IMG/VR virus record: IMGVR_UViG_3300027792_000002
Location: 1-64,000 of that record
Reading direction: 5' to 3' (one strand)
Source of the DNA: a virus
Length of the DNA stretch: 64,000 bases
Under the pieces are notes generated by a model, which saw nothing but the letters and a program-made list of their open reading frames with translations, did not search any database and was not told where the DNA came from. Shown in pieces: positions 52,310-55,962 of this stretch; positions within the stretch are counted from its first letter, which is position 1, and each line of letters starts with the position of its first letter. A program made the position numbers and the translations under genes.

Positions 52310-53092
52310 TTAAATTAAATTAATTCCCTCTACTACTCCACTTCCAAGCCCATTCTTTTCAGAAGTAGTATTCGGGTTTATTGGGCTTATTTTTATGAAA
52401 AATTTATCCTTATCGAAATACTGTTTAATCTTTTCAATATCAAAGTCTTTTTCTTCTACCAAAGTTAAATTTATGGTAGTTTTCAAATTGCTTTCGGTTC
52501 TTACATTTCCAAGTTGCTCAATGGTCATTTTATTTTTGTAAGGTATTAGCCAATTCCTATGCTCTTCATCTAAGCTATGCAAAGAAAGTTGCAGCGTTAC
52601 ATTGTCTTTTATCCAAGTAAAATCGGCATCTTTCAAACCAATAGTTGAAATGTAGTGGTGTGTATTTGGGTAGTGTTGGCTTATTTTTTCAATTGCCTTT
52701 TTAACGTTTTCAATATTTAAAAACGGCTCTCCCATTCGAGTATAGTTTATTTTAAATTCTTTACTATTCAATGGGTTTATGTTGTTTTTAGCAATTATAA
52801 ACTCAACTTGTGTTGTAATTTCTTGCCAAGTCAAATTACGCCAACTTTTCATTTGTCCAGTTGCACAAAACTTGCATCTTACAGGGCAACCACTCATTAC
52901 ACTTACCCCAATCATCCAACGTTCTGAACGGTCGCTTAATTCGTAGTTCTCGAGCATATTTTGTTTTCTACCTATTGCATCTTTTGTATAAAAAGGCAAA
53001 AAGGTATCAGTAGTTTCAATCAACATTCCGTCCTCTAATTCGAGGCAATAAACTCTACCGTTTTTAAAGTTCTTTTGTTTTTTAATTTTCAT
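52310..53092 (-). CDS. RlmN/Cfr-like radical SAM protein lacking its C-terminal cysteine
   Basis: The 260-aa product has the CxxxCxxC cluster (SGCPVRCKFCATG, C69, C73, C76), then YTRMGEPFLNIENVKKAIEK, STIGL, LQLSLHSLDEEHRNWLIPY, as in RlmN/Cfr radical SAM methyltransferases that methylate adenosine in 23S rRNA or tRNA. The usual C-terminal cysteine is absent; it is encoded by the 40-aa frame 52176-52298 next door. RlmN is normally about 350-390 aa; this lacks the N-terminal RNA-binding extension. It lies alone with its partner in one cassette. Substrate unknown. Confidence 0.75.
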   Translation of the reverse strand: MKIKKQKNFKNGRVYCLELEDGMLIETTDTFLPFYTKDAIGRKQNMLENYELSDRSERWMIGVSVMSGCPVRCKFCATGQMKSWRNLTWQEITTQVEFIIAKNNINPLNSKEFKINYTRMGEPFLNIENVKKAIEKISQHYPNTHHYISTIGLKDADFTWIKDNVTLQLSLHSLDEEHRNWLIPYKNKMTIEQLGNVRTESNLKTTINLTLVEEKDFDIEKIKQYFDKDKFFIKISPINPNTTSEKNGLGSGVVEGINLI

Positions 53093-55017: not shown

Positions 55018-55179
55018 TTATTTTTTGCCAACGCTCTTTGGCTTTTTCAAAGCCATTAAGTATGAATCCACCAAATACTCAACGAACGAACTAAACGAAC
55101 GGCGTTCTTTTACCGCCTGTTCTTCCCCTGCTTTTGCAATATCCTCGTCAATTGTAATGCTTTTGTTTATTTTTCCCAT
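55018..55179 (-). CDS. Ribbon-helix-helix-like DNA-binding protein (53 aa)
   Basis: From ATG 55177-55179 the product is MGKINKSITIDEDIAKAGEE..., with the beta strand (NKSITID) and the helix pair (AGEEQAVKERRSFSSFVEYL) of a CopG/Arc-type ribbon-helix-helix. It is one of two such genes in this 1-kb cassette, flanking the tRNA-like elements. Could be an antitoxin or a regulator. Confidence 0.65.
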   Translation of the reverse strand: MGKINKSITIDEDIAKAGEEQAVKERRSFSSFVEYLVDSYLMALKKPKSVGKK

Positions 55180-55375
55180 TTCAGTATATAATAAAAAAGG
55201 CTGCCGATGCAGCCCTGTACAAAACATTGAGTTAATTAACTACCACTCTAAAAACTTTTTCAGGGGTTTAAAAGAACTTTACACTTTGCATTTTAATCTT
55301 TAAAGCGTAAGAACTTTTAATTTTAACCTTTGCACTTTGAACGTTAATCTTTAAACTTTTCGGTTTTTTTACTTT

Positions 55376-55452
55376 TGCTCTAACCAACTGAGCTAACAAA
55401 CCCGAAGATTTGTGAAGGACTTGAACCTCCGACCTCTCGATTAGCAATCGAA
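55376..55452 (-). ncRNA. Circularly permuted tRNA-like element 1 (anticodon GCU)
   Basis: Read on the minus strand, the order is anticodon arm (55452-55436, stem TTCGA/TCGAG, loop TTGCTAA, anticodon GCT), five-base variable loop, T arm (55430-55414, GGAGG-TTCAAGT-CCTTC), 3' acceptor strand ACAAATC (55413-55407), TTCG, 5' acceptor strand GGTTTGT (55402-55396), TA, and D arm (GCTC...GAGC, 55393-55377). All four arms exist, but the 3' half precedes the 5' half, and the acceptor stem is closed by a UUCG tetraloop. Mature length would be 77 nt. Confidence 0.75.
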
Positions 55453-55594
55453 GTAACCCACATTTCGCTACCACCAAGAATTTTGCAAGGGAAAAATGAA
55501 CAATGTGTATTTTCATCCAAAGAAGTAACATTATTCTCGCCACTCGCAATATTTTAAAAAAGCAGAGTAAATTTAACAGGGAGCTTTATTATTT

Positions 55595-55661
55595 TGCTCT
55601 ACCAACTGAGCTACTTTCCGAAGAAAGAAAGGGTTCGAACCTTCGACACAAATATCTGTGA
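55595..55661 (-). ncRNA. Circularly permuted tRNA-like element 2
   Basis: The layout is the same as element 1: anticodon-like hairpin (CACA-GATATT-TGTG), T arm (GAAGG-TTCGAAC-CCTTT, 55644-55628), CTTTC-TTCG-GAAAG as a 5-bp capped acceptor stem (55627-55614), then TA and the D arm (GCTC...GAGC, 55611-55596). Both are preceded by GTAGCGA and GGGTTACTTC. The short acceptor and atypical anticodon loop argue against a decoding tRNA and for a mimic. Confidence 0.65.
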
Positions 55662-55677
55662 AGTAACCCTATTATCG

Positions 55678-55818
55678 CTACTGCTTTTTATTTTTCTCAA
55701 AGAACTTTATTATAATGTACCGCACAAAAGAAGAAATTGTTGTAAACCCGTGAGCCTTCATATCTTTTTTTAGTCTATCGTACCATTCTTGCTCAATAAA
55801 TAAGTGAAATCTTCTCAT
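55678..55818 (-). CDS. Ribbon-helix-helix-like small protein (46 aa)
   Basis: A frame from ATG 55816-55818 to TAG 55678-55680 encodes MRRFHLFIEQEWYDRLKKDM..., with the strand-helix-helix order of ribbon-helix-helix proteins (FHLFIEQEWYDRLKKDMKAH, then TTISSFVRYIIIKF). Its stop codon is the TAG in the conserved GTAGCGA that introduces tRNA-like element 2, so protein and RNA are closely linked. Confidence 0.65.
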   Translation of the reverse strand: MRRFHLFIEQEWYDRLKKDMKAHGFTTISSFVRYIIIKFFEKNKKQ

Positions 55819-55962
55819 ACTGCTTTTGTGTGTCATTCATGGTACAAATATACACATTTATTTTAATATCCAAACAAAAACAAATAAAAAAAATGCCCTC
55901 CCTAAAAAATATTAAAAATTTGTTTCGTACTCGTATCAAATTTGTGGGATAAAAAACAGCCA

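What the first reader, a model, noticed from the sequence alone, without database searches (positions are those of the whole stretch)
55376..55661. Two circularly permuted tRNA-like genes with UUCG-capped acceptor stems
Both elements have anticodon arm, T arm, acceptor stem and D arm, but in the order 3' half then 5' half, joined by TTCG. The acceptor stem of element 1 is a complete 7-bp helix (ACAAATC/GGTTTGT), with a normal T arm, D arm and anticodon GCU. Element 2 keeps the layout but has a 5-bp acceptor and an odd anticodon loop. Permuted tRNA genes are known in some algae and archaea; I know of none with a 4-base linker in a phage cassette. They could be processed to circular or normal tRNAs, or serve as tRNA mimics, for example as decoys for tRNA-cutting defence enzymes.
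Basis: partly seen in the sequence, partly recalled or inferred. Interest (0 to 1): 0.93.

Follow-up and report, generated by a model that had tools for sequence, protein, structure and literature searches.

The report
Phage Y RNAs with whole-tRNA mimic
This phage stretch carries three small non-coding RNAs of the Y RNA type, small RNAs that normally tether the ring protein Ro; two of them carry a rearranged, closed-ended copy of a tRNA, and one of these copies is a complete tRNA including the anticodon, unusual because the mimics described in the papers I could read lack that arm and because this phage has no Ro gene.

Summary
On the minus strand lie two permuted tRNA-like RNAs whose acceptor stems are closed by UUCG. 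They are not permuted tRNA genes but Y-RNA-type RNAs. Rfam's YrlA model (bacterial Y RNA) touches both below its cut-off (41 and 29.8 bits; cut-off 69). A covariance model built from 40 relatives, without the window, finds both and nothing else in 64 kb (66.8 and 51.5 bits). The family is large: phages, Bacteroidota, planctomycetes, actinobacteria. In 88 of 111 viral elements a Ro (TROVE) gene lies within 2 kb, on the same strand in all 86 cases under 1.5 kb. The tRNA part has four arms: an anticodon arm with covarying stem, U33 and purine 37 is present, and the Ro-binding stem is inserted at position 28/29. Described YrlA has only D, T and acceptor arms; Rfam does not call the four-armed relatives. 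In the window, element 2 keeps the Ro stem but has a damaged anticodon arm; element 1 keeps all four arms but lost the 3' half of the Ro stem; a third, overlooked element (55482-55550) is a Ro stem alone. No Ro gene is on the record. Known kind, new variant, orphan context; function inferred.

The parts
55557..55689 (-). Element 2 (E2), full Y-RNA unit: outer stem AAAAAGCAG/CTGCTTTTT, 7-nt 5' loop TAGCGAT, inner stem AATAGGG/CCCTGTT, tRNA-like part, 9-nt 3' loop AAATTTACT
   Evidence: Descriptor scan of 64 kb, both strands: joint best score (16); 20 shuffled windows reach at most 15; same 7/9 loop geometry as relatives
55593..55668 (-). tRNA-like part of E2: T arm, 5-bp acceptor hairpin CTTTC-TTCG-GAAAG, TA, D arm; degenerate anticodon arm and short variable loop
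   Evidence: Model R1 51.5 bits, E 8.8e-15; Rfam YrlA 41 bits, E 1.6e-7, below gathering 69
55482..55550 (-).
   Evidence: Joint best score in 64 kb; 12 other loci have such a tRNA-less stem beside a tRNA-like one, 0.0 expected from shuffles
55374..55454 (-). Element 1 (E1), complete four-arm permuted tRNA-like RNA
   Evidence: Model R1 66.8 bits, E 7.6e-20; Rfam YrlA 29.8 bits
55436..55450 (-). E1 anticodon arm, CGA-TTGCTAA-TCGAG with U33, anticodon GCU, A37, A38
   Evidence: Sequence; 29-31/39-41 covary in relatives
55396..55413 (-). E1 acceptor hairpin ACAAATC-TTCG-GGTTTGT
   Evidence: Sequence; all 8 pairs of this helix covary in relatives
55377..55393 (-). E1 D arm GCTC-AGTTGGTTA-GAGC
   Evidence: Sequence, exact match
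55455..55480 (-). E1 5' flank with the Ro-stem 5' strand and loop (TAGCGAA at 55470); the matching 3' strand was not found
   Evidence: Search up to 420 nt downstream, no acceptable partner

Best explanation
The cluster is a small Y-RNA locus of a phage (order of transcription E2-E3-E1). [quoted passage not shown] in Deinococcus the partner is the exonuclease PNPase. E2 and E3 would be held by a Ro protein supplied by the host, because the phage record has none; E2 presents the tRNA-like end, E3 is the tRNA-less companion. E1 presents the most complete tRNA face but has lost half of its Ro stem, so it is either decaying or working without Ro. The capped acceptor means that the RNA cannot be charged with an amino acid. 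Shown here: structure, family membership, genetic linkage of the family to Ro. Inferred: Ro binding, host supply of Ro, the partner at the tRNA-like end, and any benefit to the phage. I put about 0.92 on the Y-RNA identity and about 0.5 on host Ro being the working partner.
For: Rfam YrlA is the best and only sensible family match, at both elements. R1, trained without the window, hits only E1 and E2. 88 of 111 elements picked only by leader and T arm have a Ro ORF within 2 kb on the fetched locus; of the 86 within 1.5 kb, 74 lie upstream of Ro and all 86 are on its strand. 57 of 72 capped-permuted viral records carry TROVE (48 of 50 leader-type, 9 of 22 others) against 3 of 28 control phage records, and those 3 are the only controls with an R1 match of 61 bits or more. 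Mycobacterium phages Sparky and HyRo, Gordonia phage BearBQ and Microbacterium phage FuzzBuster have the RNA, unannotated, just upstream of a gene annotated 'Ro-like RNA binding protein'. Covariation: 95% of cells paired against 66% in shuffles, score 0.735 against 0.178. E2 and E3 have the Ro-type stem with the family's 7/9 internal loop. Bacteroidota: 24 of 297 genomes have TROVE and 15 of 20 of those Ro loci have an R1 match above 56 bits, so a host Ro is possible if the host is of that phylum. Ro-Y RNA-PNPase machine and YrlA tRNA mimicry: PMC8394870, PMC7790460.
Against: No TROVE gene in the 64.6-kb record, none with an HMM made from 16 phage Ro proteins, and no non-structural ORF above 319 aa, whereas Ro lies next to the RNA nearly everywhere else. 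E1 lacks a recognisable 3' Ro strand and its 27-43/28-42 pairs (AAA after the D arm; 127 of 133 relatives keep them). E2's anticodon arm is damaged. Both elements miss Rfam's YrlA cut-off. The closest phage relative found (L358) lacks the cassette. No expression data for this phage.
Confidence: 0.8

Rival explanations
1. tRNA decoy independent of Ro: the RNA soaks up host enzymes that act on tRNA (anticodon nucleases used in phage defence, tRNA-modifying enzymes), and the anticodon arm is the bait.
For: Complete anticodon arm with U33 (115 of 133), A38 (116) and purine 37 (127) kept while bases 34-35 vary; E1 has lost the Ro strand but kept the tRNA face; Ro-less jumbo phages such as Cronobacter phage GAP32 keep capped permuted tRNA-like RNAs; the idea that YrlA may competitively inhibit an anticodon nuclease has been put forward (PMC7790460).
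Against: In most relatives the RNA sits beside Ro. Anticodons are many (Asn, Thr, Ser, Lys and others), not one bait. Salmonella YrlA was not a substrate of the nuclease (PMC7790460). No test here.
Confidence: 0.25
2. Decaying remnant of a Y-RNA locus whose Ro gene was lost; E1 and E2 are pseudogenes.
For: No Ro gene; E1 lost half the Ro stem, E2 lost the anticodon arm, both lost pairs 27-43/28-42; cassette absent from the relative L358.
Against: E1's tRNA face and the Ro stems of E2 and E3 are intact, the stems better than any shuffled window; E1 scores inside the range of Ro-linked relatives.
Confidence: 0.3
3. Permuted tRNA genes processed into functional tRNAs, as in red algae and archaea.
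For: 3'-half-before-5'-half order; D, T, anticodon and acceptor arms all present in E1.
Against: Acceptor closed by a tetraloop in the family (UUCG, GCAA, GAAA, GUAA), no discriminator or CCA, ends built into a Ro-type stem, linkage to Ro.
Confidence: 0.03
4. Overlapping remnants of ordinary tandem tRNAs.
For: Tandem tRNAs can imitate the pattern; model R1 gives up to 49 bits on tRNA arrays.
Against: No tRNA in the window by ARAGORN or Rfam; acceptor strands pair across the cap, with covariation in relatives.
Confidence: 0.01

Closest known systems
YrlA-type bacterial Y RNA (Rfam RF02553; Salmonella YrlA, described in PMC8394870 and PMC7790460)
   Same: Basal stem plus permuted tRNA-like part made of T arm, closed acceptor hairpin and D arm; family linked to Ro/Rsr genes; tRNA-less companion RNA nearby
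   Different: RF02553 has no anticodon arm and few bases between basal stem and T arm. Here an anticodon hairpin is added and the basal stem enters between positions 28 and 29. Score below the gathering cut-off for the window and for the four-armed relatives scanned. No Ro gene on this record
Y RNAs of mycobacteriophages and related phages beside 'Ro-like RNA binding protein' (Sparky, HyRo, BearBQ, FuzzBuster)
   Same: Four-armed tRNA-like part found by the same model 200-300 nt upstream of Ro; phage Y RNAs are a reported class (PMC12282133, PMC7765460)
   Different: Ro gene adjacent; the window phage has none and has two partly degenerate copies plus a minimal one
Capped permuted tRNA-like RNA of jumbo phages GAP32, Serratia BF, Pectobacterium CBB
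   Same: Closed acceptor, T and D arms in the same permuted order; no Ro gene by Pfam
   Different: Different basal domain (CAGCAA motif and a roughly 10-bp closing stem), anticodon arm poor
Permuted tRNA genes of algae and archaea
   Same: 3' half precedes 5' half
   Different: There a spacer is removed and a working tRNA results (general knowledge); here the acceptor is capped and the ends are in a stem

Membership tests
YrlA (Rfam RF02553) | Score at or above Rfam's gathering cut-off (69 bits) | tested here: not met
   41.0 and 29.8 bits
YrlA (Rfam RF02553) | Permuted T arm - closed acceptor - D arm module | tested here: met
   E1 and E2; E3 lacks it
YrlA (Rfam RF02553) | Basal stem runs on from the anticodon-stem equivalent, no anticodon loop | tested here: not met
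   E1 and relatives carry an anticodon hairpin
Bacterial Y RNA (Ro-associated) | Basal stem with conserved internal loop of the Ro-linked relatives | tested here: met
   E2 and E3: 7/9 loops, best two of 64 kb; E1 not met
Bacterial Y RNA (Ro-associated) | Encoded near a Ro/TROVE gene | tested here: not met
   None in the own record; met in 88 of 111 relatives
Bacterial Y RNA (Ro-associated) | Physical binding to Ro | not testable with these tools
   Needs biochemistry
Four-armed Y-RNA-type family (model R1, defined here) | Match to R1 above the tandem-tRNA background (about 49 bits) | tested here: met
   E1 66.8, E2 51.5 bits; E2 only just above the background
Four-armed Y-RNA-type family (model R1, defined here) | Pairs 27-43 and 28-42 formed with the 3' flank of the D arm | tested here: not met
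   AAA in both window elements; 127 of 133 relatives keep them
Permuted tRNA gene | Removable spacer, free acceptor end with discriminator/CCA | tested here: not met
   4-nt tetraloop cap, covarying hairpin
tmRNA | Match to tmRNA models | tested here: not met
   ARAGORN 0, Rfam gathering 0

The most novel reading that the evidence does not exclude
Phages without a Ro gene keep closed, permuted whole-tRNA mimics, including an anticodon arm, as free-standing RNAs that engage host tRNA-handling or tRNA-cutting enzymes during infection; E1 of this window, freed of its Ro stem, would be such a molecule, and the GAP32-type RNAs an independent second class.
Probability: 0.22. Interest if true: 0.78.

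Novelty: new variant of a known kind. Interest (0 to 1): 0.52.

Why it matters
The tRNA mimicry of bacterial Y RNAs is described in the texts I could read as D, T and acceptor arms only. Here a large, Rfam-missed branch, in many phages and in most of the Bacteroidota Ro loci examined, mimics the entire tRNA, anticodon arm included, with U33 and purine 37 kept. That points to a partner that reads the anticodon arm, which is directly testable in laboratory mycobacteriophages. The orphan copies in a Ro-less phage ask whether a phage can exploit a host Ro, or whether the mimic works alone. Caveat: the founding survey (Chen et al. 2014, RNA 20:1715) was not in the library, so the anticodon arm may already be noted there.

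Tried and rejected
Plain folding energies: not significant for either element, so not used as evidence. Tandem-tRNA artefact: rejected. tmRNA: rejected. Divergent Ro in the window: Pfam TROVE and a phage-Ro HMM both empty; no ORF of suitable size outside the structural genes. First anticodon-stem reading (all five pairs with upstream bases) replaced: 28-42 and 27-43 pair with the bases after the D arm in 127 of 133, with upstream bases in 71. Finding the 3' partner of E1's Ro strand up to 420 nt downstream: none. Listeria phage P100, to link published transcripts (PMC12282133) to this family: no TROVE by Pfam and only 35 bits with R1, so that transcript evidence was not claimed. Phage neighbours by RlmN and by a 141-aa protein: relatives found, but no cassette at the related place. 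Promoter and terminator scans uninformative. A first parser failed on the D arm and was replaced. Searches of plasmids and E. coli genomes were not made.

Full report
OBSERVATION. The window is 64,000 of 64,616 bases of one viral record, a tailed phage (terminase, portal and tape measure by PHROGs). Reading the minus strand, element 1 (E1, 55454-55374) gives an anticodon arm with anticodon GCU, variable loop AGGUC, T arm, a 7-bp acceptor closed by UUCG, UA and a D arm. Element 2 (E2) has the same layout with a 5-bp acceptor and a poor anticodon arm. ARAGORN and Rfam at its own cut-offs find nothing. With relaxed thresholds Rfam gives YrlA, the bacterial Y-RNA-like family, for both elements (41.0 and 29.8 bits, E 1.6e-7 and 2.8e-4; cut-off 69). 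That was the lead for everything else.

RELATIVES. The second set is an unbiased test of the cap: 81 of 112 have a hairpin of at least 5 bp directly after the T arm (13% in shuffles), followed by UA in 77, with the start of a D arm behind it in 75. Caps are stable tetraloops: UUCG, GCAA, GAAA and GUAA lead.

FOUR ARMS. In 133 parsed relatives pairs 29-31/39-41 are all formed in 98. Pairs 27-43 and 28-42 are both formed with the bases that follow the D arm in 127, but with upstream bases in only 71; 28-42 occurs as UA 62, CG 33, GC 20 and AU 11. So the anticodon stem is real and the break of the permutation lies between positions 28 and 29, where the basal stem enters. U33 is kept in 115, A38 in 116, a purine at 37 in 127 and G15-C48 in 128; bases 34-35 vary and U36 is commonest (77). 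On a 40-sequence alignment 95.0% of cells pair (66.3% in shuffles), the covariation score is 0.735 against 0.178, and the anticodon, 27-28 and all 8 acceptor pairs change on both sides. Rfam's YrlA consensus has only a few bases between basal stem and T arm and no such hairpin (alignment), and a review describes D, T and acceptor arms only (PMC8394870). None of the 15 viral loci, four named Ro phages and four Bacteroidota Ro loci scanned reaches the YrlA cut-off.

LINK TO RO. 88 of 111 leader-selected elements have a Ro ORF on the same fetched locus, all within 2 kb; of the 86 within 1.5 kb all are on the same strand and in 74 the Ro ORF lies downstream. By Pfam TROVE, 57 of 72 records with capped permuted RNAs are positive (48 of 50 in the leader-type group, which I put together by eye, and 9 of 22 others), against 3 of 28 phage records chosen for an unrelated gene. 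Those three are exactly the controls with R1 matches of 61 bits or more; the others stay at 49 or below, from tRNA arrays. In GenBank at least 343 phage records carry the Ro protein, and in Sparky, HyRo, BearBQ and FuzzBuster the four-armed RNA lies unannotated upstream of it. Outside viruses it occurs beside Ro in planctomycetes, actinobacteria and others, and in 15 of 20 Bacteroidota Ro loci above 56 bits; 24 of 297 Bacteroidota genomes have TROVE.

THE WINDOW COPIES. Model R1, without window sequence, finds only E1 (66.8 bits, E 7.6e-20) and E2 (51.5 bits, E 8.8e-15) in 64 kb. The Ro-type stem of relatives has an outer stem, a 7-nt 5' loop (TGGCGTA-like), an inner stem and a 9-nt 3' loop (GCTTGTTCC-like). 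A descriptor for it, run on both strands of the window, puts E2 (55680) and a new element E3 (55542) first with equal scores of 16, above the best of 20 shuffled windows (15). E3 has no tRNA part; 12 other loci have such a companion beside the four-armed RNA, with none expected from shuffles. E1 has the 5' strand of the stem but no 3' partner within 420 nt. Both E1 and E2 have AAA where relatives have the 26-28 bases that pair with 42-43. There is no TROVE on the record, no match to an HMM of 16 phage Ro proteins and no non-structural ORF above 319 aa. The closest phage relative found lacks the RNAs.

MECHANISM. Established for other Y RNAs: Ro/Rsr holds the basal stem and in Deinococcus the RNA tethers Ro to PNPase (PMC8394870, PMC7790460); YrlA is modified by tRNA enzymes (PMC8394870). 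Inferred here: E2 and E3 can be held by a Ro, most simply the host's; the capped tRNA-like end recruits a tRNA-handling partner; the anticodon arm of the four-armed branch widens the choice of partner. The cap rules out charging. A Ro-independent decoy, or decay after loss of the Ro gene, are the serious rivals.

NOVELTY. Kind known (bacterial and phage Y RNAs). The anticodon arm and insertion point appear to be a variant that Rfam and the readable literature do not describe; the founding papers could not be read, so this is stated with reserve.

SECOND CLASS. Thirteen of the 22 other records with capped permuted RNAs have no TROVE. One, Cronobacter phage GAP32, is complete and its RNA is conserved in Erwinia, Serratia, Xanthomonas and Pectobacterium jumbo phages with a closing stem of about 10 bp and a CAGCAA motif. 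Divergent Ro proteins missed by Pfam cannot be excluded there; in Listeria phage CKA15 an Rsr match was seen only by HHpred (PMC12282133).

Noticed in passing
L338:3040-3190 (GAP32 310,109-310,259) and L339-L343: Unannotated capped permuted tRNA-like RNA with CAGCAA motif and a closing stem of about 10 bp, conserved in jumbo phages without a Pfam-detectable Ro gene (Mimasvirus, Eneladusvirus).
   Followed up: partly
window 52310-53092 (-): Radical SAM protein resembling RlmN by eye (CKFCATG motif), a tRNA/rRNA methyltransferase type; 32 viral contigs carry relatives of 60-97% identity. 3 of 28 such records also carry Ro and a four-armed RNA.
   Followed up: partly
L279 6533 (-), L293 3947 (-): ANME-type archaeal MAGs (Methanophagales, Methanosarcinales) have the leader, anticodon arm and T arm beside a Ro gene but then a second T-arm-like hairpin instead of the capped acceptor and D arm.
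   Followed up: no
L025:1418-1490 (+): 73-nt match to the tmRNA model spanning model positions 1-374, that is, tmRNA ends without room for the tag frame, about 0.4 kb from a four-armed Y RNA.
   Followed up: no
window 55240-55375 (-): A-rich stretch with short direct repeats (TTAAAGATTAA, AAAGTGCAAAG) where the 3' Ro strand of E1 would be expected; may mark the rearrangement that truncated E1.
   Followed up: no
window 55678-55836 (-) and 55018-55227 (-): Small ORFs that look like ribbon-helix-helix proteins by eye (no Pfam match) flank the cassette; the first one ends inside the 5' stem of E2.
   Followed up: partly
L005:5679-5746, L044:156-228, L113:3713-3780: Rfam's tRNA model passes its cut-off on parts of four-armed Y RNAs (29.5-32.7 bits), so some may be misannotated as tRNAs.
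   Followed up: no
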